From positions 1 to 36,327 of the IMG/VR virus record IMGVR_UViG_3300021467_000017: DNA of 36,327 nt; one strand, 5' to 3'. The stretch comes from a virus. Within the stretch, counting starts at the first letter, position 1. Every line of letters begins with the position of its first letter. Below the pieces are notes generated by a model. That model did not search any database, had not been told where the DNA came from, and was given only the letters and a program-made list of their open reading frames with translations. A program made the translations under genes and the position numbers. This document shows, piece after piece, positions 3,085 to 30,406 of this stretch.

Positions 3085-3157
3085 AGGGGGCTAGCTCAAT
3101 TGGTAGAGCAGCGGTCTCCAAAACCGTTGGTTGGGGGTTCAAGTCCCTCGTCCCCTG
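3085..3157 (+). tRNA. tRNA-Trp (anticodon CCA)
   Basis: A complete 73-nt cloverleaf can be drawn. The acceptor stem is 3085-3091 with 3150-3156 (7 bp, one G-U). The D arm is GCTC/GAGC at 3094-3097 and 3106-3109. The anticodon stem is 3111-3115 with 3123-3127 and the loop is CTCCAAA. The T arm is 3133-3137 with 3145-3149 and its loop is TTCAAGT. The anticodon is CCA (3118-3120) and the discriminator base is G, as expected for bacterial tRNA-Trp. CCA is not encoded, so the host must add it. This tRNA reads only UGG, and long genes in the window end at normal TGA codons, so it is not evidence for stop-codon recoding. Confidence 0.95.
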
Positions 3158-4261: not shown

Positions 4262-4538
4262 TTACCGTCTTCAAGTGGAGACAGCCTTGGGGCGACGGCT
4301 TAAGTCTGATGACCACGTCCATCATATTGATGGTAATCCAACCAATAACGAATGGGAAAACCTGGCCGTCATGCCAAGAGGTATTCATGTTCTTTTAACC
4401 AGACTGGAACAGAATCTAGATAAAATAACTTTGTTTAACCACGAGGGAAGACCTTATCATCCAGAGGCAATAGTGTTCTTCCCTCTACCGCTTCCTCCTG
4501 TAATTCGTGAGGAAGACATCGGAGGAGGTTACTTATGA
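4215..4538 (+). CDS. HNH endonuclease (107 aa)
   Basis: This is a small metal-dependent HNH nuclease. The core is visible: HVHHIDGNPTNN (residues 34-45) with the paired His 36-37, then ENL (48-50) and the terminal His in RGIH at residue 58. The N-terminal 30 residues contain Tyr/Arg-rich sequence typical of small phage HNH proteins. GGGAGG about ten bases upstream supports ATG 4215. It ends in a four-base ATGA overlap with the Cas4-like nuclease gene. Free-standing HNH genes in phages often act as homing endonucleases, and no intron signature surrounds this one. A role in packaging is less likely because it is far from the terminase genes. Confidence 0.85.
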   Translation: MTRKRVTTPNGRRTYDYRLQVETALGRRLKSDDHVHHIDGNPTNNEWENLAVMPRGIHVLLTRLEQNLDKITLFNHEGRPYHPEAIVFFPLPLPPVIREEDIGGGYL

Positions 4539-5278
4539 TAAAGGGTGTTATCTGCCCCATAACGGGCAAAAACACCCCCACCCACAGATGTTTGGAGTGC
4601 GCTTTGAATAAAGAGCGGCCCGATTGTAAGTATGACCCGATGGTGTTAGCTCAGATGCTGCAAAATAGGCGGCTGAGAGGTTTATCCGTAACTGAGATAA
4701 CGTCAGAGTTCCCTCGAAAAACGCTTCTTAACCATCTGATTGATTATTACATATCTCCCGATATAGGATACTACTCGGTTCGAGGAAGGTGGGCTCATGC
4801 GGATAAACAAGCAGTGAAACTGCCGCCCGAGTTCGGGAAAGTTCTCAGGGAGGTCAGGTTTTCTTTCCCCGATATTCCCGATTTGTCAGGTCAGATAGAT
4901 GCGTATTATCCCGACCAGCAAATTCTGGTGGATTACAAGACGACATCCCGACTCCCTGACCAACCCAAACCAGAACATATCCGACAGCTTAACGTTTATG
5001 CTGAGCTTTTGCGAGCGAATGGGTATCCTGTGTGTAAAGCTTTTGTCACATATTTGACTTATTCTACACATAAACAAGAGGCCATCCCTTTATGGGACAG
5101 AGATAAAGTGATGAGCATGGTTGTGGAGTTGCTTGATTTCTATCAGGAGTGTTTAGATAAAAGGGAAGTGCCGCCTCGCGAGTTGTGTGCAGGGCCCGAT
5201 AAATATTTTATGTGTAGGTATTGTCCCCACCGAGATATTTGTGTTGAACATCCTGATTGGTGGCGGGTTGACCAGTAA
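4535..5278 (+). CDS. Cas4/RecB-like PD-(D/E)XK nuclease with Fe-S cluster cysteines
   Basis: This is a predicted DNA exonuclease for end processing or recombination. The nuclease core shows RGRWAHA with His 88, GQIDAYY with Asp 122, LVDYKTT with Asp 133 and Lys 135, and the motif IV pattern QLNVY (Gln 151, Tyr 155). C-terminal cysteines at 227, 230 and 236 (CRYCPHRDIC) match the CxxC-x5-C of Cas4/AddB proteins that bind a 4Fe-4S cluster with one more Cys. Unusually there is also an N-terminal Cys set (7, 19, 22, 31) that may form a separate metal site. The length, 247 aa, fits phage Cas4-like proteins. No CRISPR array or other cas gene is present, so adaptation is not implied. Confidence 0.85.
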   Translation: MIKGVICPITGKNTPTHRCLECALNKERPDCKYDPMVLAQMLQNRRLRGLSVTEITSEFPRKTLLNHLIDYYISPDIGYYSVRGRWAHADKQAVKLPPEFGKVLREVRFSFPDIPDLSGQIDAYYPDQQILVDYKTTSRLPDQPKPEHIRQLNVYAELLRANGYPVCKAFVTYLTYSTHKQEAIPLWDRDKVMSMVVELLDFYQECLDKREVPPRELCAGPDKYFMCRYCPHRDICVEHPDWWRVDQ

Positions 5279-5536: not shown

Positions 5537-6444
5537 GTTCACGAACAAGGGTTCAGGGGCGACTCATTCGGAAGTACATCAATTGGCAAGACGTATTTGG
5601 AGTTGGACATAGGCGGTGTCCTTTTCCCGAAAGACACGCTGAAGGAGACAAACATCCGTCTGTGTTTATCTATCCCAATGGCGCTTACTGCTTCGGCTGT
5701 GGCTGGCATACATCAGACATATTTGAAGCGTGTAGAATCTTCCTGGGATGGTCAATCCCCAAAGCCCGTCGTTACCTGTATGGGTTGTTGGCCCAGGGAA
5801 GAGTTCAGCAAACAGTGCAACAAAGCGAGGCTATCAAACCCGTATCTCCAACTCTCATTCGGAAATGGATGAACCAACGTAAGCCACAGGATGTACAATA
5901 TTTGTGCGATAGGTATGCTTTATCGCCTATTGTCTTAAATAGAGCTTTTATTGGGTACGAAGGGAATGCCTTTACCATTCCTCATTTAGGTTTAGACCAC
6001 CAGGTCTGGGCGGTTAAATTCCGAAGAGATGACCGCAAAACTCAAGACGGCCCAAAGTATTGGGCACTAGAAGGACGAGGATTCTATTATCTTTATCCCG
6101 CTTTCGCACTAAATTGGATTCTCAATAACCGCCCTTCTCAGGTTCTGTTATGTGAGGGGGAATTCGATGCCCTGAGCGCGCTGTCTCACAACATCCCTGC
6201 TATATCTGTTCCATCAGGCAGTAGTACAAAGTTAAAATGGTGGAGCGGGATTTGGGGGCGCTTTGCTGACATGGGAACGACTCTCTATCTGGCGTTCGAC
6301 ATGGACGATGCGGGACAGCGAGCTCGAACAGCGGCATTTTATTACTTCGAGCGCAATTTCCCTAATCTATTAGTGGTTAGCCTGGAATGGGAAGGCGGTA
6401 AAGATGTAGCAGAAGTTTTGAAAGCCAGAGGGAGGTTGTGGTAA
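5533..6444 (+). CDS. DnaG-type DNA primase (CHC2 zinc finger plus TOPRIM)
   Basis: This protein makes RNA primers for DNA synthesis. The N-terminal zinc domain shows CPF (Cys 29), His 35/41, and CFGC (Cys 53 and 56). The TOPRIM fold follows with VLLCEGEFDAL (Glu 208) and YLAFDMDDAG (Asp 256, Asp 258), the metal-binding residues. The length of 303 aa is short compared with bacterial DnaG (about 580-600 aa): there is no helicase domain and no long C-terminal helicase-binding region. The partner helicase is encoded separately at 989-2065. The start is fixed by the ATGA overlap with the upstream zinc-ribbon gene. The gene ends with a one-base overlap (TAATG) with the next gene. Confidence 0.92.
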   Translation: MSSRTRVQGRLIRKYINWQDVFGVGHRRCPFPERHAEGDKHPSVFIYPNGAYCFGCGWHTSDIFEACRIFLGWSIPKARRYLYGLLAQGRVQQTVQQSEAIKPVSPTLIRKWMNQRKPQDVQYLCDRYALSPIVLNRAFIGYEGNAFTIPHLGLDHQVWAVKFRRDDRKTQDGPKYWALEGRGFYYLYPAFALNWILNNRPSQVLLCEGEFDALSALSHNIPAISVPSGSSTKLKWWSGIWGRFADMGTTLYLAFDMDDAGQRARTAAFYYFERNFPNLLVVSLEWEGGKDVAEVLKARGRLW

Positions 6445-8120: not shown

Positions 8121-8588
8121 ATGAACGTATACAGAATTTATTTTGCTCACCCCGCAACTTCACACAATACAGAGGGTGAGAAACGTATTACAGATATTCT
8201 GAAGGAGCGAGGATGGCAGGTTATCAACCCATTTCTCGACGATGCTCATCAGAAGGCGGAGTTTGTGAATAATATCAGACAGAATAGGTTTGGAATTCTG
8301 GACTCTGCCAAACTGGTGCTGAACGACATCATTCATATAGGCCGCAGTGATGCTATCCTGGTATGGCTTCCTAAAGGGCATACCAGTGTCGGAACAATCT
8401 GTGAGTTGATTCACGGATGGTATATGGGAAAGTATATCATCATCATTTACGAGCTCCATGATTTTCCCCATCCCTGGGCATGGTGGCACAGCGATGAGTT
8501 CTACCGCAGCATAGACGATTTTGAAAACAGACATGTTTGCTCCGATGATTGGTGGAAGGAGGTAGAGCATGATAATAACGACTCTTGA
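8121..8588 (+). CDS. Nucleoside 2-deoxyribosyltransferase-like protein
   Basis: The protein has the flavodoxin-like layout of the nucleoside 2-deoxyribosyltransferase/DUF4406 group. It starts YRIYFAHP, has GWQVINPF, then ND (about residue 68), SDAILVWLP, and the signature GTICELIHGWYMGK, where the Glu would be the nucleophile. Members exchange bases between deoxynucleosides or cleave nucleotides, and in phages they sit among nucleotide-metabolism genes. At 155 aa the length fits. GGAGGG upstream supports ATG 8121, and the end overlaps the DNA polymerase gene by 20 bases. The exact substrate cannot be told from the sequence. Confidence 0.75.
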   Translation: MNVYRIYFAHPATSHNTEGEKRITDILKERGWQVINPFLDDAHQKAEFVNNIRQNRFGILDSAKLVLNDIIHIGRSDAILVWLPKGHTSVGTICELIHGWYMGKYIIIIYELHDFPHPWAWWHSDEFYRSIDDFENRHVCSDDWWKEVEHDNNDS

Positions 8589-10443
8589 TGCGGCAATAGA
8601 CTTGCGAGAACGTCTGCGAGGTAGACCGATTGCGTTTGACTTTGAAACCACCGGTACTGACTGGACATCAGACCGCATTATCGGGCTGGGGATTGCGGAT
8701 GCTCGTGATGAGTGGTACATCCACGTAGGGGAGGGCGGGCTTGATGAAGATGGGCTAGCCGCTGCCCTGGAGAGTTGGTTTGATAACCCCTACCAAATAC
8801 TTGTCGCTCACAACGCTAAATTCGACCTGCATTGGCTGGCAAATTTGGGAGTATTGCCTCTGAAAGTTCCCATTGATACGATGGGGCTTGCCATTACTTA
8901 TAACGAAGCTTTACCTCGCGACTTAAAGACTCTGACCTGGCTCGTCCTGGACAGACAGCCCAGGAGATGGGATAAAACCTTTCCAATATGGTCTCTGGAA
9001 GAAAAGGCCGAATACTGTTGCTCTGATGTTCGGAATACCTTCGACTTATTCCGTTGGTTCTCAACAAGAATTCCCAGAAGTCTTCATGATTTCTATCAAA
9101 CACAGGTATACAAACTACCTTTGGTAGGATTTTTGATGGAAAGAGTCGGATGGCAGCTCGATAGAGACGCAGTTCTAACGTACCAAAGCGAGCTTGCCAA
9201 AGAGATAGACGAGCTTAAAGCACAGATATGTGCATCAGCTCCTGGTTTGGAAAACCCAAACTCTACACAGCAGTTGGTCGCCGCACTTGAGTTATTAGGA
9301 GCAAAATGGAATAAAGATGAATATACTAAGAGAGGGCGCAAGTCCGTCGCCAAGAGTGTCCTGGAGCGATTCGCAGAGTCTTCCAGTTCTCCCGAAGTAC
9401 GGGCGTTAGCAAGCGCAATTCTCGACCTCCGCAAAAAAGTCAAATTATTAGGTTATTTAAGCGGAGACAGAGGATGGCTTGCGAGTTCGGTAAATGGGAG
9501 GCTGCACCCCACCTGGAAAGTCTTCGGCACCTTTACGGGGCGATGGGCTTGCGCCAACCCCAACCTGCAGAATATTCCCAAGGCCCGCTCTGAAAATACG
9601 GTTAATATGAGGGATTGGCTTATCGCCGCTCCTGGCCATGTACTGGTCGTTGCCGACCTGTCTCAGGCAGAGTTAAGAGTGTTGGCCGCTTTATCTCAGG
9701 ATGAACGTTTGTTGAATGCCTATAAACAGGGGCAAGATGTCCATAAAGTTACGGCAGCCGCTATCTTTGATAAGCGGTTGGACGAAGTGTCTAAGATGGA
9801 AAGATTTATTGGCAAAACCGTAAACTTTGCTACCATTTACGGAGCGGGCCCGAGTCGGGTATCTAAAATTACAGGAGTATCGTTGGATGATGCACGAGAT
9901 TTGTTAGAACGCTTCTACCTTGTATATAAAGGAGTCAGGCGTTGGATAGAAAATACCCGCTGTACTGCGCTGGCCGATGGAGTAGTTTACACCGCGTTTG
10001 GGCGGCCTCGCCGCCCCATGCTATTAAAGGCCAAAGAATTATTGGATGTAGATATTGATGATTGCTCGCCAGGTGAAGAGCGCCTGGAGCGAGCAGCATT
10101 AGAGGAAGAACTTCATAAAGTCGGCTTGTCTTCCCGCATTCTCCGAGAGATGAGTGTTGGAGAACAAGAACATGCCATTAAACAACTTGAGGAGCGTGCC
10201 CTTCGCCAAGCAGTTAATGCAGTCATCCAAGGTACTGTAGCAGATATAATCAATCAAGGAGTCTTTAAGTTAATCCGACAACGGCGACGGGTTATCGGTC
10301 AGGTACATGACGAGCTCATTGTTGAAACGCCTATTAGCGAAGCAGAGGAGACGGCCAAAGCAGTTCAAGATGCTCTATCCGTCTCAGTCAGAGGTCTTCC
10401 AATGGTGATAGATGCAAAAGTAACTCCCCGTTGGGGAGCCTAG
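8569..10443 (+). CDS. Family A DNA polymerase with 3'-5' exonuclease domain
   Basis: This is the phage replicative polymerase. The exonuclease domain starts with DFETTG (Asp 24, Glu 26), then VAHNAKFD around 83-91 and CSDVRNTFDL around 144-153. Polymerase motif A is VADLSQAELR (Asp 363). Motif B is GKTVNFATIYG (Lys 416, Phe 420, Tyr 424), and motif C is QVHDELIVE (Asp 581, Glu 582). There is no 5'-3' exonuclease domain, as usual in phage enzymes of about 600 aa. Phe 420 aligns with E. coli Pol I position 762, a position where Phe or Tyr has been linked to virulent phages and Leu to temperate ones. The start has a strong GGAGG site. Confidence 0.95.
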   Translation: MIITTLDAAIDLRERLRGRPIAFDFETTGTDWTSDRIIGLGIADARDEWYIHVGEGGLDEDGLAAALESWFDNPYQILVAHNAKFDLHWLANLGVLPLKVPIDTMGLAITYNEALPRDLKTLTWLVLDRQPRRWDKTFPIWSLEEKAEYCCSDVRNTFDLFRWFSTRIPRSLHDFYQTQVYKLPLVGFLMERVGWQLDRDAVLTYQSELAKEIDELKAQICASAPGLENPNSTQQLVAALELLGAKWNKDEYTKRGRKSVAKSVLERFAESSSSPEVRALASAILDLRKKVKLLGYLSGDRGWLASSVNGRLHPTWKVFGTFTGRWACANPNLQNIPKARSENTVNMRDWLIAAPGHVLVVADLSQAELRVLAALSQDERLLNAYKQGQDVHKVTAAAIFDKRLDEVSKMERFIGKTVNFATIYGAGPSRVSKITGVSLDDARDLLERFYLVYKGVRRWIENTRCTALADGVVYTAFGRPRRPMLLKAKELLDVDIDDCSPGEERLERAALEEELHKVGLSSRILREMSVGEQEHAIKQLEERALRQAVNAVIQGTVADIINQGVFKLIRQRRRVIGQVHDELIVETPISEAEETAKAVQDALSVSVRGLPMVIDAKVTPRWGA

Positions 10444-21389: not shown

Positions 21390-22358
21390 CTACGTGGTTG
21401 TACTGAAGTTATAAATCTTGGCCATAGTTTGCTCGTTGCGAATACGCCAGCCGTACTCACCCAGGATTCGACGAGCGATATGGTCTTTACCGGGGATAGT
21501 CGCGTCTATCGCCTTGAAAGACCGAGCGCCCAGTACAACCGAGTCAATGTACCGCATGTTCAGCAAGTAGAGCTCACCGCCCTTCACCAGATGGTCGAGC
21601 AGGAAGTCTACTGTGCCAAAATCGGTCTCGATTCGGTCAATCCTGGCTCCACCTACGCGCTCAGCACGGTCGGTCGTAATGAGACCACGATACCAGGCAG
21701 TCATCTTCCGCTTAACCCAGGAATTGCCGACCATCAAGTCAGGAACTTCCTCCTGACCGTAGTTGTTGAAGATGTTTTCCAACTCATCAATGATGTCGGC
21801 CTCCTCCAGGGCCGCACCAGACTTGTCGGTAACGTTGGTGCTCAGGAACTGGGCCAGACCGCCGGAAACGCGAGGCTCGGTATTGTCGGAAGGCGCATTG
21901 CGCTTCGCATAGAGCAAGCCGCGCTCCATCTTCTGATAGAGCTCGCGCATTCGCTTGTCCATGCGGTAGTCGAGCTTGGCCATACCCTCAACTCCATATT
22001 CCGCCATCTCAGTCTCGGAGCCGAAAATCTCGACATCCTCACTGAAAATCTGAGTGTAGTTGTAGACCTGGGTGGTTACAACTTGACGAGCGGCACCAGG
22101 ACTGGAGCCCTCGAGCTGAGCGTTTCCCAAAATATAAACGACGGTATTGTCGCTGTGGTTGGCAGCACTTGTACCACACATAGCGGGCTTAACCGTCAGG
22201 TCATCGCCCTCAACTGCCATTACCCACATAATCTCCGAATCCACCAGAATCAAATCGCCTGGCTTGAAGTATTCGCCATTGTCAACCGTTAGGGTTGTTC
22301 CATCGGCGGTATAACCACCCGCCATGTTAATGGCGTCGGAGATGGGAATCAACTCGTC
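21390..22358 (-). CDS. Major capsid protein, exon 2 (C-terminal 322 residues)
   Basis: This is the larger part of the major capsid protein. It contains a beta region (GGYTADGTTLTVDNGEYFKPG), then QVYNYTQIFSEDVEIFG, a long helical spine (YGVEGMAKLDYRMDKRM) and a C-terminal domain with GARIDRIETDFGTVDFLLDH. The pattern resembles SU10/DUF5309-type HK97-fold capsid proteins. Only a TTG could act as a local start and no ribosome binding site precedes it, so it is not a stand-alone gene. It joins exon 1 (23049-23207) after removal of a group I intron, giving about 375 aa. The 3' splice site after G at 22359 is chosen to keep the frame. The true junction could differ by a few bases. Confidence 0.85.
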   Translation of the reverse strand, partial: DELIPISDAINMAGGYTADGTTLTVDNGEYFKPGDLILVDSEIMWVMAVEGDDLTVKPAMCGTSAANHSDNTVVYILGNAQLEGSSPGAARQVVTTQVYNYTQIFSEDVEIFGSETEMAEYGVEGMAKLDYRMDKRMRELYQKMERGLLYAKRNAPSDNTEPRVSGGLAQFLSTNVTDKSGAALEEADIIDELENIFNNYGQEEVPDLMVGNSWVKRKMTAWYRGLITTDRAERVGGARIDRIETDFGTVDFLLDHLVKGGELYLLNMRYIDSVVLGARSFKAIDATIPGKDHIARRILGEYGWRIRNEQTMAKIYNFSTTT

Positions 22359-23048
22359 CAAAACGTGTTAACTCTATGTCGCCATAGAGGTCGGACTATG
22401 TCATCGTCCATTAACAGGACGCCCCGCGTATAGTCTCTGGGGCACGCCCGTTGAGACGACCGATTTCAATCCACATCTCAACATCATAGTTATCGGGAGG
22501 AGTTTTTGGAGGACGCCGTAGCCTAACATCTACGTATTCGGCCAAAAGCTGAAGTTGTTTTCGCTTTGCCTTTGCACATATTCCAAAAACAGATAGGAAT
22601 CTTGCCACGCGCTTCAGCCCCTGTATATGCAACACTCCTACAGGCTTTTGGCCTAGTCCCCGTTGTGGTCTCCATCCTATCCAGTGTCCTACACCATACC
22701 TGTCGAAAATAGTATGTAGCCCCTCTATGAACTCGGAGTTGGTGTTTTGAAACTGGATGACAGGAATAAACCTTCCTCGTGGCCGTCTCTTGCGAGGCTG
22801 TACCCGCGTGATAGTAATACACCCATCACAATCCAAACAGCCTCCCACATATCCTATATCAAACGGGCTTGCCTGCAAATTGCCTGCACCATTGGTTTGT
22901 CGCCTCATCAGCACCTCCGGATACTCAGGTGTCCTTGCATACAGCGGGGTTTTTACAGTACAACGAGTTAGTCATACTGCCACTCCACTTTGTATGACAT
23001 CCCACGTCTCGTTGTACTGGGTGGAAGAAGTACAAGTGGCTATTTCTC
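22359..23048 (-). ncRNA. Group I self-splicing intron in the capsid gene
   Basis: Core helices are visible on the minus-strand RNA. P1: exon bases 23049-23057 pair with 23025-23033, with a U-G pair at the 5' splice site. P2: 12 bp, 22956-22967 with 23008-23019, capped by a 7-bp hairpin. P3: CCCCGC (22944-22949) with GCGGGG (22422-22427). P7: GACTAT (22430-22435) with ATAGTC (22394-22399). P8: 22405-22409 with 22417-22421. P9: a 7-bp hairpin with a GCGA tetraloop (22372-22389). Order and motifs (CAGAGACTA, CATAGTCC) match group I introns. The exact 3' end is uncertain. Confidence 0.88.
22411..22908 (-). CDS. LAGLIDADG homing endonuclease encoded in the intron (165 aa)
   Basis: The dodecapeptide GYVGGCLDCDGCITITR (about residues 20-36) is a LAGLIDADG motif. 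Later helices, and the ending NYDVEMWIEIGRLNGR, fit the single-motif class that acts as a homodimer and cuts intronless capsid genes to spread the intron. The ATG at 22908 has GGAGG five bases upstream; that site is partly paired in a hairpin (CACCT with AGGTG), which could limit translation of unspliced RNA. The coding region runs through the P4-P6 area, P7 5' strand and P3 3' strand, and its stop codon sits in the P8 loop, so protein and ribozyme share sequence. Confidence 0.88.
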   Translation of the reverse strand: MRRQTNGAGNLQASPFDIGYVGGCLDCDGCITITRVQPRKRRPRGRFIPVIQFQNTNSEFIEGLHTIFDRYGVGHWIGWRPQRGLGQKPVGVLHIQGLKRVARFLSVFGICAKAKRKQLQLLAEYVDVRLRRPPKTPPDNYDVEMWIEIGRLNGRAPETIRGASC

Positions 23049-23207
23049 ATACTTCTTGTTATCCACCGACCCACCACTACCCAGACCCACAGTGCGCAAG
23101 AGTGGATACTCGTCATTGGTGATGAGGTCGAGACGGTCTTCGAGACTGCGGACAACCTGCTGAGTAGCGGAATAGGTACTTTCAGGGCCAATCTTCACCG
23201 TAGCCAT
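23049..23207 (-). CDS. Major capsid protein, exon 1 (N-terminal 53 residues)
   Basis: GTGGAGGT lies just before the ATG at 23207. The 53 codons begin MATVKIGPESTYSATQQVV and include NDEYPLLRTVGLGSGGSVDNKKY. That stretch matches the N-terminal region of SU10-type capsid proteins, where a short arm with a T(P)F/LL..G segment precedes the fold. Without splicing the frame would stop two codons later at TAG (23040-23042), giving a useless 55-aa peptide. Its last nine bases pair with the intron guide sequence. It sits 12 bases before the scaffold gene end on the late operon, at the expected place for the capsid gene. Confidence 0.85.
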
Positions 23208-24031: not shown

Positions 24032-27000
24032 CTACCTCCTTATTCTCCATCGCGTCCGCCCGGTGACGTAAGGGCCACCGAGAACAGGCGGAATATTAAC
24101 TCGTGGCGCGCTGGGCTGCTTGAAGCCGGTTGCCCCAAACCGAACCCATAGCCGCCGAATGTAGTCCAACCAGTCGTCAAAAGACAGGTCTGTGCCACTC
24201 GCTTCCCAAACACGACGTAGATGTCGTCTGGCCGCAGCGGATAAAGGACGGTTAGAAGCCCAATGCTCAATAAGCTCTCCCATTACTAGAGGGCCAAGAG
24301 AATGTACCAGACCCCGCCAGGTTACCTGCGACATAGGCGAGCCCCGATAGAAGCCTTTCCCTGTATACGCACTCCCTCGATACCGACCACCACCTGTACG
24401 TTGAGCGTACTTCTCTTGCCGCTGTACCCAATCCGGGTCGTAATACTTAGTAAAGATTGGGTGCTCGGCCTTAAATTTGTTTTGGGCATCGAAGAGAGCT
24501 AGTAATTCGGGATGCTCCTCTAAGAATTTACGTCGGCAACTCATGCCTTCGCAGCGAGCTCCTTGCGGAATCTGGAAATATGCGTCTCGTAGTGCCTCTA
24601 GTTCTGGAGTCATCAGGGCAAAATACTCTTCAGCCTCTGTCCGTGCCTGTTCATACTCCCTGGGGTCACCAATGTCGTGTTTAGGAAGTTCCTCAATCAG
24701 AAACTCCATAGCCGCAGTATAAGCATCGTCAGTAATGTATTTACGAGATACTTTGTCCAGGATGGCAGAAACAAGAGGATGCTCTCTTGCCCACTTTCCC
24801 AGCTCCCCCGGCGGCACGCAGTCATACCAGAGTTTCCAGAAGCGTCGGGATGGAGTATTGGGTGGGAACCACTTCTCAACAAGTTCGTGTTCCCATAAGT
24901 CGGACTCTCCGTTAAGAGCACGTTGTAACAGTTCGTAGGCCCGCTGATACTCTTGTTCTTCTGCGGGGGACGGAAGAACAATCTTCTCAGGGGCCTCCCC
25001 CGCACGGAGCTGTTCGCGTGCTCTCTCCAGAGCTTCTTGTGCTTCCTTACGTGCTTCCTCCTCGGTAAGTCCAGTCTCGGGGCGAGCTGTTGGAGCAAAG
25101 CGGTATGCCTCCCTATCTTCTGGCTCAGGAGGTATCCAGCCACCCTGTACCATCTCGTCCCACTCTTCTTGGGTCAGACGACGCGCTGCGAATAAAAGTT
25201 CTTGTTCCGTCATCGGCACAGGCCCTGTACCGAAAGGAGGACGGCGACCCTCGGGAATTAACGATGTCCAGTCGTCTGGCAGAAGGTTAAGCCACAGGGC
25301 CAATTCCTCATCAGAAATCTGGTTGTACTCACCGGCCAGAAAGAGCTCGGCGAAACGAGGCCCTAGAACGTCTTTGGCCATTCGTCTTGCCAAACTTTTT
25401 TCGGGCAGGGTTTCCCAAAAGCGCCACAGTTCAGATATAACCATATCTCGGTCGCTTCCGCGTATGTACGTATAATCTCTTGCGACGAAAGCGCCGATTT
25501 GTTTACCAATCCGTTTTAACTCAGCAATCTTATCTTCATCCCAATCAGGGTGAAGGACGGTAATAGCAGCAATAAAGTCGGGGCTTGTTGGGTCAAGTAC
25601 TGTATTGAGCAGGTCATCTCTCCATTGCTGGTAATCATTAAGTGCTTTATCCAGCTCGGGATGTGCTTCTCGAAACTCCTGATTGGATGGGAAATCTAAG
25701 TCTCTATAAACAGCATACAAATCTTGAACTTCCTGTGTAGTATTTTCCTTCCACCAGTCAGTTTGATAGAATTTGTCCCATACCTTAGCAACTTGATTGT
25801 TTAACTCTCGATATACTGCATCAACGGGTGTGTCCCGTCTTACCAGCTCCCTACGGATGTCTAGAGCCGTAAAAAGACGAGGCTCTTCATCAGCCCGTAC
25901 AGAAGCTGCAACCTCCAACATGGTTTGTGGGAGGTTTTCTAGCATCCTTTCTTTTTGTTCGGGGTCAGCCTTGTACCATCTGTCCAGAAATTCCCGCATA
26001 GCCTTGGCTTTTGGCCCATCCCGCCACTGGATAAACTTCTTACGATTATCGGCCAAAACATCAAAATACTCTGTAAGAACGTCTTCATACTCCTCATTTA
26101 ACTCTTGCCGTCTACGAGAAAATTCCTGAATTGTACGATAGTGTTCGGGAGAACCAATCGGAAATCGCTGTAAAGCGTCCTGGCGCTGTCGTTCGAGCTC
26201 GCCTCGTTTCTGATAGTATTCGTTAACCTTGAGATTAAGGTCAACCCATTCCTGCCACTCTTCCTCGGAGATTTCGCCTTTGGCTACATCCCAGTAGCGA
26301 AAAGCCAGCTGACGAAAACGGTACTCGGGATAAATTTCATAAAATTCTTTGAGGGCATCTCTATCCCCTTGCTCATACCGTTCATAATATTTCTTATAAA
26401 TTTGCCCTTGCCCACGAAGGATACGCTCTTCCGATGGGTAAATTTTAAAGGGCATATACGTACCCCAGCGGATAGCAGATGGAATGGCGACCTGTTCAGC
26501 AGCTCTACGAACGGCTAAATCCCAGGCTCTACCTTTCTGTTCTCTGAGAGCCTGAATTGCCTCCTCTTCGGTTATCTCGCCGCTGCCCAGGAGGTTAGCA
26601 ATCCACTGATAACGCCAGTAAGTTTCGGTGGGCTGTATTCTACCTAGACCTAGCCAATCATGAATAGTCCCTTCGGGGTTTAGTCCCTCAGGAGGGACAT
26701 CAATTCCCATCCGTTTTAGTATTGATTCTCCAAGAATAGATAATCCCCGAATCCCTCGGGTGGCTGACCAATACGCTGTACCCGTCTTCATAGCCATGGG
26801 CGGGATATACCGTTTGATATAACGGGCCAATGTAGGTTGGTGTTCCTCTGCCCAAGGAAGCACGGCGTTAGCCAGCAAAGCGACCGAATCAAAGAGAATT
26901 GGGCTGGTAGACCACATATTATTTATAAATACCCATTCACGACCTCGAGTGATGTCCATATAGTTGTCGGGTAAGTATGTCTTTCCCCACATCGGCATAG

Positions 27001-30000
27001 TCTCGAGCGGAAATAAAATTCTCATAGGAGCGAAATAAAGCTCTGTATCCGCCGACCATGCCTGGTCGGTTAGAAACTTATACATACCTTGAATCCCAAC
27101 CGGAAACCAGCCTTTCAGCCGCCTTGGAACGAGCGGGTCTTTCTCAAGTTGGGCTTCCATCACCGCCTGATAGCGGTTAAGCCAACTCATCACACGAGGG
27201 TGGTCAACAATATAAAGTAACCAATTCCAGATGTTATGAACAGCCCAATACTCATAGGGAATCCCCAAACCCAAAAAGACATCAAGAATCGTGCGGTCAA
27301 GATAGTCCAGAATGGCAAAGTCCCTATCTGCAAGAGCTAGTCGAGCAGTGGTGTATTGGGCTAAGTCCATCGCTTTCTGGAATTCGGTATCAAACCAATC
27401 AACAATCTTACTCCACAAAGACGGAGGAATGTCCATTGATGGATTCAGTGCCTTGAACGTTCGCTGGTCTAGTTTCTCGATGGCAGATTCCAAATGGGTC
27501 TTATACAGGCGGACAATATCATACAGGTTCGGGATATTCTCAGGCAGGCGGTCTATCTTCCAGGACGAGTTGGCCCACTCTACCCACTCATCCATGTTTT
27601 CTTTATAGAGCATGTAGCGCTTGGCGAGCTGAACCGCGTGCTGTAAGTCGTCATAATCCTCAGGCGATACAACATACTGAGGGTTATCTTTAACCCACTG
27701 TTGTACTTTCTTAAGAATTTCCAGAGCTCCGGCATCGTCTATTAGAGACGGAGGAATTCGTAAAGTATCAACCTCTGGAATATCTTTTACAAGTTTCTGA
27801 CGACCCTTCGGAAGAAGCTTTTTGTAAATCTCAAAGAATGCGTCCTTTGCCTTGATGGGAGTTATTTCGTCAAAGTGGGTTAGCTGATGCATGGCCTCCA
27901 TAACGCCATCTTGGAGAACCTGCTCCCCAATATCGTCCGTGAATCTGGGATAAAACTTCCGCATAAAGGGATAAGTCTTTTGATAATACTCCCACAGCTT
28001 CCTCGGAGGCTCGCCCGCCTGAATCATCTTAAATACAACATCGTCCATCGGTTCACACAGGTCAGCAACGTCCACACCATAAACTGCAGCAACTCGACGC
28101 AAGAGGTCGAAATCATGTGAGTCGGATGTCATTACCTCTCGGACAAGAGGATGGCGGGCAAAACGCTGCGTAACACTCTCCACCGCCCGAAGAATTTTTG
28201 CTTTATGATGTCCCCAACCCACAAACTGGAGGTCACGAAAGTGCTTCTCTTTGGCAACCTCTTCGGCTCCCTCGGTTATCATTCGCCGAAGGTTGTTTAT
28301 AATTCCCCGCCGTTCTGCCTCACTTGTTACACCAGATAGTTTCTGAACTTCATCAAGAATATCGGGATGGGCAAGAATAGCCTCTCGTTCGGGTTTAGTT
28401 AGCTGACGAAGGTACCAGCCGATTCCAATAACCCGTCCCTCTACTTCTGCCCCCTCTACAACGGCTTGCTCAATAGCCTTAAGTTCATCCAGAACGGCAC
28501 GGTAGCCGTATTTTCCAATTCCTACGGAATTGATGGCCTCTACCAACTCCTCTCCCCGTTCGGGAGATGCGGCGCGAATAGCATCTGCAAGCTCATCAGG
28601 AAGCTGGGGCATAGCCTGACTCCAAATTCTTGGCCAGCGCTTGATATAAGATTGTGTGATAGCAAATGCCGAAGCCCGTTCCTCAATAGAACCTGCTGCT
28701 TTTAGAAAAGGGCCTTTAATAGTATCCCATACAGTCTTCCAAACAGTCTTAACCCGATTCGCATCTTCAACACCAACCTCAGCCATCGTTACGGTAAAAC
28801 CTGTTTTCAGGCGTTGAGGTATGGCCCCTACCATATCAGAAAAGAATTTTTCGGCTGCTCGAGCATTTAGAGCTAGGTTATCCGTAAAACTGCCTCCCGG
28901 TATTCGCTGCCACCCAATACGGGTAAAGATGTTACGCATATTATCGAACCAGTTAGCAATCGCGTATTGTGGGTTCCAACCCAGGAAGAGCGGCGATAAG
29001 ACCTTCTTCTGCATACGAGACCACTTTTCAGCCCAGCGCGAAAAGTCATCCAAAACCCGCCCCCATCGGGTATTCCGCAGGTAACGCATCTCTTCTGCAC
29101 GGGCAACCTTGGATGCATTAGTTGCAACAACCTCCAGCGCTTCGCGGACAGTCTGAGTCGAGTGCACTCCATCAAAGAGCTGCTCCTCCGGGATGTTTTC
29201 TAACACTCGTTTAACCAGTTGACCATAAGTCGAATTGTACCGTGAGTCCTCCATAAACTCACGAATAACCCGAGGTAAATCGTCTACACTATGAGCCCGT
29301 TTAAGTTGAAAGACAAGAAAGTCATGAACGGTCTCTCCGACCTTCCGAGCTCTCGCAGCAGGTGTACGCCCTACTCCCGTGATACGATATGCAGCGGTCT
29401 GAAAATCAAGAACCTCATCAAGAGGCTGTGATGCTGCATGAACAATTTTTCTGGCACGAGATGTGGCTATAGGAGTTTTACCTGTCCAAGATACAATATT
29501 GAGAGGGTCGAGCACAAACCCAAAAACCAGCTCCGGAATGAATTTCTGATGTTGTTTCAGAATCTTTTCCCTTTCATCATCGTCCTCAGCCTGCATAAGC
29601 TTCCGATGGATTTGTTTGAACTCTTCATGACCCCGTGCTCGCCCCTCTGGGCCTGGGCCTGCGCCGAATACCCAGGAAAAAGATATACGGTCTACATCTC
29701 GAGCAATTTCCTCTGCCTTTTTACGTAAATCAGGGTCATAACCGTACTCCTCATCCAACCATTCATCAATGCTTTGAGATGGTGCAGTTTCTATCCACTG
29801 TTCCCAAGACTCGTATTTGTCGGGGTCGAAAGGCTCTAAAGGAGCGGGTTTGGTACGAGCAATACGACCGACAGCACGTTCTACCAGATAGCCTGCCTGT
29901 CCAAAAGCAGGGCCAACAAAACGGAAAAGACCCTGGCCCGCCAGTCCCATAAGTCCATGTTTGATTGGCTCAACAACTTTGCGCCAGCCAGTCTTGGCTT

Positions 30001-30406
30001 CGTATTGGGTTTGGACAGTCTCTCTGGTGTCCTGAAACATTTCTACCGTCTCATCCCACCAACGTTGAAGCCCCTGCTTAGCTTCCTCTATCGCCCATAA
30101 CTCCAGGTCTGTAGGTTCTGCCTGCGTATAATAAGCAGGGTATGTATATGGTGTTGCCCCTACAGGAGACACAATACGGGAGAGGTCTAGCCAGCGCCTC
30201 CACCAGGGTACAGATTCGGTTTCCTGTTTAGGACGATACTCCCAAGGTTTGAGAGGTTCCCCTCGCTCATAACGCATGATAGCGTCCCGCTCATAGTCGG
30301 GACGTTCTTTCCAAATCATAGGAAGCCAAGGCTTCCTCTCTTCACCCTCTTCTTGAGGAGGTCTATAAGTTCCTCCTCCGTGGGTCATAGATATTATATC
30401 AGCCAT
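24032..30406 (-). CDS. Giant virion-associated protein of unknown fold (2124 aa)
   Basis: A single uninterrupted frame starts at 30406 (TAATG overlap with the upstream gene). The N-terminal 250 residues are basic and Trp/Pro-rich. Residues about 290-700 are helical with a hydrophobic patch (LSPLFLGWNPQYAIANWFDNM). The middle is mixed. From about residue 1400 it is strongly charged and coiled-coil-like, with related segments such as FREAHPELDKALNDY (near 1570) and FLEEHPELLALFD (near 1960). No catalytic motif is recognised. Lying between portal and scaffold, it could be an internal or ejected virion protein or a large polyvalent protein. A head-morphogenesis domain cannot be excluded. Confidence 0.8.
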   Translation of the reverse strand: MADIISMTHGGGTYRPPQEEGEERKPWLPMIWKERPDYERDAIMRYERGEPLKPWEYRPKQETESVPWWRRWLDLSRIVSPVGATPYTYPAYYTQAEPTDLELWAIEEAKQGLQRWWDETVEMFQDTRETVQTQYEAKTGWRKVVEPIKHGLMGLAGQGLFRFVGPAFGQAGYLVERAVGRIARTKPAPLEPFDPDKYESWEQWIETAPSQSIDEWLDEEYGYDPDLRKKAEEIARDVDRISFSWVFGAGPGPEGRARGHEEFKQIHRKLMQAEDDDEREKILKQHQKFIPELVFGFVLDPLNIVSWTGKTPIATSRARKIVHAASQPLDEVLDFQTAAYRITGVGRTPAARARKVGETVHDFLVFQLKRAHSVDDLPRVIREFMEDSRYNSTYGQLVKRVLENIPEEQLFDGVHSTQTVREALEVVATNASKVARAEEMRYLRNTRWGRVLDDFSRWAEKWSRMQKKVLSPLFLGWNPQYAIANWFDNMRNIFTRIGWQRIPGGSFTDNLALNARAAEKFFSDMVGAIPQRLKTGFTVTMAEVGVEDANRVKTVWKTVWDTIKGPFLKAAGSIEERASAFAITQSYIKRWPRIWSQAMPQLPDELADAIRAASPERGEELVEAINSVGIGKYGYRAVLDELKAIEQAVVEGAEVEGRVIGIGWYLRQLTKPEREAILAHPDILDEVQKLSGVTSEAERRGIINNLRRMITEGAEEVAKEKHFRDLQFVGWGHHKAKILRAVESVTQRFARHPLVREVMTSDSHDFDLLRRVAAVYGVDVADLCEPMDDVVFKMIQAGEPPRKLWEYYQKTYPFMRKFYPRFTDDIGEQVLQDGVMEAMHQLTHFDEITPIKAKDAFFEIYKKLLPKGRQKLVKDIPEVDTLRIPPSLIDDAGALEILKKVQQWVKDNPQYVVSPEDYDDLQHAVQLAKRYMLYKENMDEWVEWANSSWKIDRLPENIPNLYDIVRLYKTHLESAIEKLDQRTFKALNPSMDIPPSLWSKIVDWFDTEFQKAMDLAQYTTARLALADRDFAILDYLDRTILDVFLGLGIPYEYWAVHNIWNWLLYIVDHPRVMSWLNRYQAVMEAQLEKDPLVPRRLKGWFPVGIQGMYKFLTDQAWSADTELYFAPMRILFPLETMPMWGKTYLPDNYMDITRGREWVFINNMWSTSPILFDSVALLANAVLPWAEEHQPTLARYIKRYIPPMAMKTGTAYWSATRGIRGLSILGESILKRMGIDVPPEGLNPEGTIHDWLGLGRIQPTETYWRYQWIANLLGSGEITEEEAIQALREQKGRAWDLAVRRAAEQVAIPSAIRWGTYMPFKIYPSEERILRGQGQIYKKYYERYEQGDRDALKEFYEIYPEYRFRQLAFRYWDVAKGEISEEEWQEWVDLNLKVNEYYQKRGELERQRQDALQRFPIGSPEHYRTIQEFSRRRQELNEEYEDVLTEYFDVLADNRKKFIQWRDGPKAKAMREFLDRWYKADPEQKERMLENLPQTMLEVAASVRADEEPRLFTALDIRRELVRRDTPVDAVYRELNNQVAKVWDKFYQTDWWKENTTQEVQDLYAVYRDLDFPSNQEFREAHPELDKALNDYQQWRDDLLNTVLDPTSPDFIAAITVLHPDWDEDKIAELKRIGKQIGAFVARDYTYIRGSDRDMVISELWRFWETLPEKSLARRMAKDVLGPRFAELFLAGEYNQISDEELALWLNLLPDDWTSLIPEGRRPPFGTGPVPMTEQELLFAARRLTQEEWDEMVQGGWIPPEPEDREAYRFAPTARPETGLTEEEARKEAQEALERAREQLRAGEAPEKIVLPSPAEEQEYQRAYELLQRALNGESDLWEHELVEKWFPPNTPSRRFWKLWYDCVPPGELGKWAREHPLVSAILDKVSRKYITDDAYTAAMEFLIEELPKHDIGDPREYEQARTEAEEYFALMTPELEALRDAYFQIPQGARCEGMSCRRKFLEEHPELLALFDAQNKFKAEHPIFTKYYDPDWVQRQEKYAQRTGGGRYRGSAYTGKGFYRGSPMSQVTWRGLVHSLGPLVMGELIEHWASNRPLSAAARRHLRRVWEASGTDLSFDDWLDYIRRLWVRFGATGFKQPSAPRVNIPPVLGGPYVTGRTRWRIRR

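What the first reader, a model, noticed from the sequence alone, without database searches (positions are those of the whole stretch)
22359..23207. Major capsid gene interrupted by a group I intron
Exon 1 (53 codons with a strong ribosome binding site) and exon 2 (322 codons without one) both look like parts of one SU10/DUF5309-type capsid protein. They are separated by about 690 bases in which P1, P2, P3, P7, P8 and a GNRA-capped P9 can be paired by hand. Introns in phage capsid genes are uncommon, and a normal gene caller would miss the N-terminus. The exact 3' splice site is not settled: in-frame joining favours G22359, giving ...NKKY|DELIP.
Basis: partly seen in the sequence, partly recalled or inferred. 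Interest (0 to 1): 0.85.

Follow-up and report, generated by a model that had tools for sequence, protein, structure and literature searches.

The report
Capsid gene with core-less mini intron
This phage's capsid gene holds a normal self-splicing intron plus, 12 bases upstream, a 63-base intron that keeps the guide sequences but has no catalytic core; similar miniatures (35-70 bases) in other phages' capsid genes are followed by a full intron downstream wherever the contig extends, so one ribozyme probably cuts out several introns.

Summary
It therefore splits into a normal 615-nt group I intron B (22973-22359; LAGLIDADG-like ORF; P1 and P10 match both exons) and a separate 63-nt insert A (23048-22986). 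A has its own 16-nt guide (P1 9 bp + P10 7 bp), group I U|...G| borders, an in-frame stop and no catalytic core. Removing both gives KYEWQYDELIP, as in intronless relatives; NKKY|DELIP does not. A is not alone. In another phage capsid family I found 13 further distinct core-less mini-introns (35-70 nt, five sites). All have stops, guide pairing to both exons and restore the intronless protein. Every mini gene complete enough to tell has a full group I intron downstream (minis in 8 of 17 intron-bearing versus 0 of 35 intronless clusters, p=3e-5). One mini is a full intron with the core deleted. Best reading: non-autonomous 'satellite' introns spliced by a neighbouring intron's core. No RNA data exist, so splicing and core sharing are inferred.

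The parts
23049..23207 (-). Exon 1 of the major capsid gene (codons 1-53, ...VDNKKY)
   Evidence: Translation; aligns with the N-terminus of L002, L003, L007; 'gtggaggtaag' upstream is a plausible ribosome binding site
22986..23048 (-). Insert A: 63-nt core-less mini-intron, borders T|GAG...GTG|G, in-frame TAG at 23042-23040
   Evidence: Absent from intronless relatives; coordinates; guide pairing 16 bp, reached by 0 of 2000 shuffles
23025..23040 (-). Guide sequence of A, GCCACUU|GUACUUCUU: pairs with AAGAAGUAU (P1) and GAGUGGC (P10); the only wobble pairs are the two at the splice junction
   Evidence: no other T|..G| pair 63 nt apart in the window exceeds 12 bp
23008..23019 (-). CAGUACAACGAG in A: perfect complement of the guide of intron B, a mimic of the ligated exon junction; proposed to keep B's guide masked until A is removed
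   Evidence: 12-nt match, 0 of 300 shuffles; duplex -19.3 versus -17.9 kcal/mol for the true junction. Function is inference
22974..22985 (-). 12-nt micro-exon GAGTGGCAGTAT (EWQY)
   Evidence: Conserved KYEWQxD motif in relatives; raises the PF17236 score from 176.3 to 193.8 bits
22359..22973 (-). Intron B: 615-nt group I intron, CAGTAT|GACTAA...TTTTG|GACGAG
   Evidence: Rfam gpI 27.2 bits; alignment with 12 related introns
22956..22969 (-). Guide of B, AACUCGUU|GUACUG: P1 with CAGUAU and P10 with GACGAGUU
   Evidence: 16 contiguous pairs when extended
22944..22949 (-). P3 5' strand CCCCGC (partner GCGGGG 22427-22422)
   Evidence: P3 covaries across relatives
22394..22435 (-). P7 (GACUAU 22435-22430 / AUAGUC 22399-22394) with P3 3' strand and P8 (GUCC 22420-22417 / GGAC 22409-22406) between
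   Evidence: First five P7 pairs invariant in 13 of 13 introns; Rfam alignment
22372..22389 (-). P9 hairpin CUCUAUG-GCGA-CAUAGAG
   Evidence: Sequence; Rfam alignment
22411..22914 (-). LAGLIDADG-like homing endonuclease ORF inside intron B (GTG 22914 or ATG 22908 after GGAGGT); its 3' end overlaps P7, P3 and P8
   Evidence: PF14528 LAGLIDADG_3, E 7.6e-4, 20.1 bits against a 22.5 cut-off; PHROG 5046 E 1.1e-4; no match in solved structures
21390..22358 (-). Exon 2 of the capsid gene (DELIP... to stop)
   Evidence: PF17236 E 1.2e-48; 76% and 64% identical relatives L002, L003

Best explanation
The capsid gene carries two intervening sequences of group I type. Intron B (615 nt) is a complete ribozyme with a LAGLIDADG-like ORF. 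Insert A (63 nt) is a non-autonomous 'satellite' group I intron: it kept the 5' end (guide sequence forming P1 and P10) and the terminal G, and lacks the whole catalytic core (P3-P8), probably by internal deletion. The core of intron B, 12 nt downstream in the same transcript, probably docks A's P1 helix, removes A with exogenous G and A's own terminal G, and then splices itself. Because B's core must act before it leaves, A has to go first; the 12-nt copy of the B exon junction inside A would mask B's guide until A is gone. Shown: exon borders, conservation of the micro-exon, guide pairing, recurrence of mini-introns, and a downstream full intron wherever the contig allows a test. Inferred: that A is spliced, that B's core does it, and the enforced order.
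For: (1) Removing A and B gives exactly the conserved KYEWQYDELIP. (2) A's 16-nt contiguous guide pairs with both flanks and wobbles only at the junction, the same design as in B. (3) Fourteen distinct mini-introns including A (35-70 nt), in two capsid families and at five sites in the second, all T|...G|, P1 6-9 bp plus P10 4-8 bp, all with an in-frame stop, ten with lengths not divisible by 3. Shuffled inserts reach the pairing in 0-13 of 2000. (4) P1 covaries with the exon at the VKY site: AAGUUU/GGACUU in L093; position -7 as U-A, G-C and C-G in L021, L114, L116. (5) L108 (45 nt) and the full intron of L092 (652 nt) sit at the same site and share guide CATGAATGTCTCGTA and 3' end TTATTG: a core deletion. 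(6) Clusters at 97%: 8 of 17 with a full intron carry a mini, 0 of 35 without (Fisher p 3e-5); every mini gene whose contig extends has a full intron downstream. (7) Two phages about 98% identical to L100 lack its mini and its full introns; identity stops at the mini's 5' splice site. (8) Excision of 64-100 nt introns in trans by an engineered group I ribozyme is demonstrated (PMC4094466).
Against: No RNA evidence; everything rests on DNA. The mini-introns share no obvious motif beyond guide and terminal G, so how a foreign core selects the 3' splice site is unexplained. The junction mimic was found only in this window. Minis arise from full introns, so co-occurrence partly reflects ancestry, and the p-value ignores phylogeny. 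Tiny fungal introns of similar size are reported to splice by themselves (PMC3160393). The window phage has only one example, and no close relative with the same introns was found.
Confidence: 0.6

Rival explanations
1. One reading: one 690-nt intron 23048-22359 with P1 = AAGAAGUAU/GUACUUCUU and P2 = CAGUACAACGAG/CUCGUUGUACUG; EWQYD is a relic in the P2 loop and the protein is NKKY|DELIP.
For: P1 and P2 are perfect, and the minimum-energy fold of the 5' region forms both; the 3' site is the normal one.
Against: Deletes four residues of a motif present in all close relatives and lowers the family score. Leaves the 7-bp P10 of A, the 16-bp guide of B and the terminal G of A unexplained; P10 with exon 2 would be 2 bp. 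Most related introns have no P2 at that place. In the other mini genes the same logic would skip whole exons.
Confidence: 0.15
2. The mini-introns splice by themselves, like the 63-75 nt degenerate group I introns of Phialophora rDNA, or with a host protein, without borrowing a core.
For: PaSSU (67 nt) is reported to splice in vitro (PMC3160393).
Against: The Phialophora introns keep a P7-like pairing and end in U; the phage minis end in G, go down to 35 nt and show no shared structure outside the guide. Minis are absent from genes without a full intron.
Confidence: 0.13
3. Insert A is skipped by ribosomes (translational bypassing as in T4 gene 60, take-off GAG to landing GAG).
For: In the window the codons before gap and landing can both be read as GAG, with a strong hairpin and a stop just downstream.
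Against: None of the 14 minis has matching take-off and landing codons at the mapped borders, and L108 and L100 interrupt codons; guide pairing with both flanks and covariation are not expected.
Confidence: 0.03
4. A is a dead remnant and this capsid gene or contig is defective.
For: Single record, no RNA; A has a stop codon.
Against: Guide pairing is intact here and covaries across other phages; mini-introns recur in otherwise intact capsid genes.
Confidence: 0.09

Closest known systems
Degenerate small group I introns (PaSSU etc.) in Phialophora and lichen fungi rDNA (PMC3160393)
   Same: Similar size (63-75 nt in Phialophora, 56-81 nt reported overall); P1 with U.G at the splice site, P10, most core helices lost
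   Different: rRNA genes, described as one clade, terminal U, a P7-like pairing, reported to splice without a neighbour intron; the phage elements sit in protein genes at several sites, end in G and accompany a full intron downstream
Group I intron in the major capsid gene of mycobacteriophage LittleE (PMC3706429)
   Same: Phage capsid gene, LAGLIDADG-like ORF, intronless relatives; splicing shown by RT-PCR and protein sequencing
   Different: One 819-bp insertion; no mini-intron described in the passages read
Engineered trans-acting group I ribozymes ('spliceozymes', PMC4094466)
   Same: One group I core removes a separate intron of 64-100 nt and joins its flanks
   Different: Laboratory design with the guide on the ribozyme; here the guide lies on the substrate intron, as in Szostak's 1986 core-in-trans experiments (recalled, not read here)
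Phage group I introns with homing endonucleases (T4 td, nrdB, nrdD; reviews PMC2988022, PMC3984707)
   Same: Intron B: canonical core, borders, ORF inside the intron
   Different: Accompanied by a core-less satellite and a 12-nt micro-exon

Membership tests
Group I intron (intron B) | P1 with U.G at the 5' splice site, P10, terminal G | tested here: met
   Guide AACUCGUU|GUACUG pairs with CAGUAU and GACGAGUU; ends TTTTG
Group I intron (intron B) | Conserved core P3, P7, P8 and P9 | tested here: met
   Aligned with 12 related introns; P7 invariant, P3 covaries
Group I intron (intron B) | Rfam RF00028 score above the curated gathering score | tested here: not met
   27.2 against 50 bits; this is a curation threshold rather than a biological feature: the ORF splits the core, two relatives without ORF score 38.6 and 40.8 and one 55
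Group I intron (intron B) | Self-splicing activity | not testable with these tools
   Needs RNA
Group I intron (insert A and other minis) | Guide sequence, U.G, P10, terminal G | tested here: met
   14 of 14 minis
Group I intron (insert A and other minis) | Catalytic core P3-P7 with G-binding site | tested here: not met
   Inserts of 35-70 nt leave 19-59 nt after the guide, with no common structure; hence 'group I-derived, non-autonomous', not a member as an autonomous group I intron
Phialophora-type degenerate group I introns | P7-like pairing and terminal U, independent splicing | tested here: not met
   Terminal G in all; no conserved P7 seen; activity not testable
LAGLIDADG homing endonuclease (P0001) | LAGLIDADG domain above curated cut-off | tested here: inconclusive
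   PF14528 20.1 against 22.5 bits
SU10 major capsid protein | PF17236 over full length | tested here: met
   193.8 bits with both introns removed

The most novel reading that the evidence does not exclude
Phages carry core-less satellite group I introns (35-70 nt) that are excised by the ribozyme core of another intron downstream in the same transcript, so one natural ribozyme splices several introns; in the window a junction mimic in the satellite enforces the order. This would be a natural two-component splicing system with the guide in the substrate and a shared catalytic core.
Probability: 0.5. Interest if true: 0.95.

Novelty: new variant of a known kind. Interest (0 to 1): 0.88.

Why it matters
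Group I introns are described as acting naturally only on themselves (abstract of PMC6155759). Introns that dropped their core and rely on a neighbour's would be non-autonomous parasites of a ribozyme, a natural counterpart of engineered trans-splicing ribozymes, and a concrete model for how self-splicing introns could evolve towards substrates served by a shared splicing machine. In practice they break capsid genes for gene callers and are too small for intron searches to detect. The numbered loci make the idea directly testable in vitro.

Tried and rejected
HEG relatives in viral contigs and phages: none. Exact P7/P3 DNA pattern of intron B: none. SU10 capsid relatives in bacterial genomes: none; the second capsid family gave one intronless hit. 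Rfam gathering thresholds miss most of the full introns. A general junction mimic in other minis: not found. Small gaps in other genes of five mini-bearing phage contigs: junctions mostly unlike the reference protein (2-10 of 20 matches) with short P10, i.e. ordinary indels; minis were seen only in capsid genes, though portal genes carry full-size introns. Three pattern hits (L117, L121, L122) lie outside the capsid family and were not counted. Spliced copies of mini genes as cDNA-like contigs: none closer than 88% by script; a natural pair lacking the introns was found instead. Bypassing rejected on codons and phases. Automatic site calls for some full introns (L022, L087, L099-L105 codon 52) were imprecise; the class (full-size) is not in doubt but exact borders there are not settled.

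Full report
Observation. On the minus strand the capsid gene starts at 23207; exon 1 (53 codons) runs into a stop, and the rest of an SU10-type major capsid protein lies at 22358-21390 (PF17236, E 1e-48). Rfam finds a sub-threshold group I match at 22604-22372 (27.2 bits, E 1e-4). The core aligns with related phage introns: P7 is invariant, P3 covaries, and P9 has a GCGA loop. Inside lies an ORF with a weak LAGLIDADG match. So the group I intron is real.

Exon structure. Intronless relatives from viral contigs (76%, 74%, 64% and 62% identical) read KYEWQYDE.. or KYEWQEDT.. without interruption. The segment therefore consists of insert A (63 nt), a 12-nt micro-exon and intron B (615 nt). The protein with EWQY scores 193.8 bits, without it 176.3.

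Borders. Intron B has the guide AACUCGUU|GUACUG, which pairs with CAGUAU (P1, U.G at the splice site) and GACGAGUU (P10), and then passes through UAAAAA directly into P3, as most of its relatives do. Insert A has a guide of the same design, GCCACUU|GUACUUCUU, pairing with AAGAAGUAU and GAGUGGC. In A's guide the only wobble pairs are the two at the junction, and A ends in G. Among 4166 T|..G| pairs 63 nt apart in the window, A's 16 bp is unique and the next best is 12. A has no room for a core. A also contains CAGUACAACGAG, a perfect complement of B's guide.

Recurrence. A P7 pattern scan of viral contigs brought up a different capsid family in which the same thing happens: a 42-nt insert with a stop, upstream of a 200-nt group I intron. 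The phage Tunturi_3 (host Tunturiibacter, soil, Finland) has the intronless gene. Eighty relatives and a pattern search gave, with the window, 14 distinct minis of 35-70 nt. In the second family they lie after codons 20, about 54, about 300, 303 and 315. All fit T|...G| borders, contiguous P1 (6-9 bp) plus P10 (4-8 bp), an in-frame stop, and restoration of the reference protein. Ten of the 14 lengths are not divisible by 3. At the codon-20 site the guide covaries with the exon. L108 is a core-deleted version of the full intron in L092.

Association. In the unbiased set, clustered at 97%, 8 of 17 clusters with a full intron carry a mini and 0 of 35 without (p 3e-5; relatedness between clusters not corrected for). 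One mixed cluster holds intronless L059 and L064 together with mini-bearing L099-L105. For every mini whose contig extends far enough, a full intron follows downstream in the same gene; L114 ends too early to tell. Phages about 98% identical to L100 lack its mini and its full introns, and the identity stops at the mini's 5' splice site, as if mini and downstream intron had been exchanged together. In five contigs, small gaps in other genes look like ordinary indels.

Mechanism. The simplest account is that the core of a full intron in the same transcript accepts the P1 and P10 helices of the mini. The chemistry is documented for an engineered ribozyme that removes 64-100 nt introns in trans (PMC4094466). 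For the window I propose that the mimic holds B's guide until A is out, since B's core would be lost if B left first; the duplex energies allow it (-19.3 against -17.9 kcal/mol) but do not prove it.

Known relatives. Tiny degenerate group I introns exist in fungal rDNA (PMC3160393) and are reported to splice alone. Capsid introns are known in phages (PMC3706429). A dependence of core-less introns on a neighbour was not found in the paper searches made; the library lacks preprints and most subscription journals, so priority is not established.

Limits. No RNA was seen. The association ignores phylogeny. The role of B's core and the order of events are inference. Confidence: B is a group I intron, about 0.95; A is group I-derived and removed from the message, about 0.8; removed by a neighbouring core, about 0.5-0.6.

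Noticed in passing
L008 1893-2500 (same contig as L141) versus L007/L142: A relative of the window's capsid gene carries a different insertion with a LAGLIDADG-like ORF at codon 33, absent from a 95% identical neighbour; Rfam gives no group I match for it.
   Followed up: partly
L143 around 4290-4915: A third insertion of about 620 nt in the same SU10 capsid family, at codon 358.
   Followed up: no
L022 (minus strand): One capsid gene appears to hold five intervening sequences: two minis and three full-size ones.
   Followed up: partly
L021 5465-5664 and L022 near 3101-2894 (minus strand): Near-identical intron cores sit at sites five bases apart with different guide sequences, as if the intron had shifted its insertion site.
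   Followed up: no
L130 8746-9264; L135 near 5965-6203: Portal genes of mini-bearing phages carry full-size introns without ORFs (two in L130, one in L135).
   Followed up: partly
L059/L064 versus L099-L105: Natural pair of phages about 98% identical differing by their capsid introns, with diverged exon sequence downstream of the mini (co-conversion-like).
   Followed up: yes
window 8569-10443 (+): DNA polymerase I-like protein, with weaker matches to the aminoadenine-incorporating DpoZ models.
   Followed up: no
window 24032-30406 (-): 2124-aa ORF with no Pfam match at E 0.1.
   Followed up: no
window 3085-3157 (+): A tRNA gene, anticodon read by eye as CCA (Trp).
   Followed up: no
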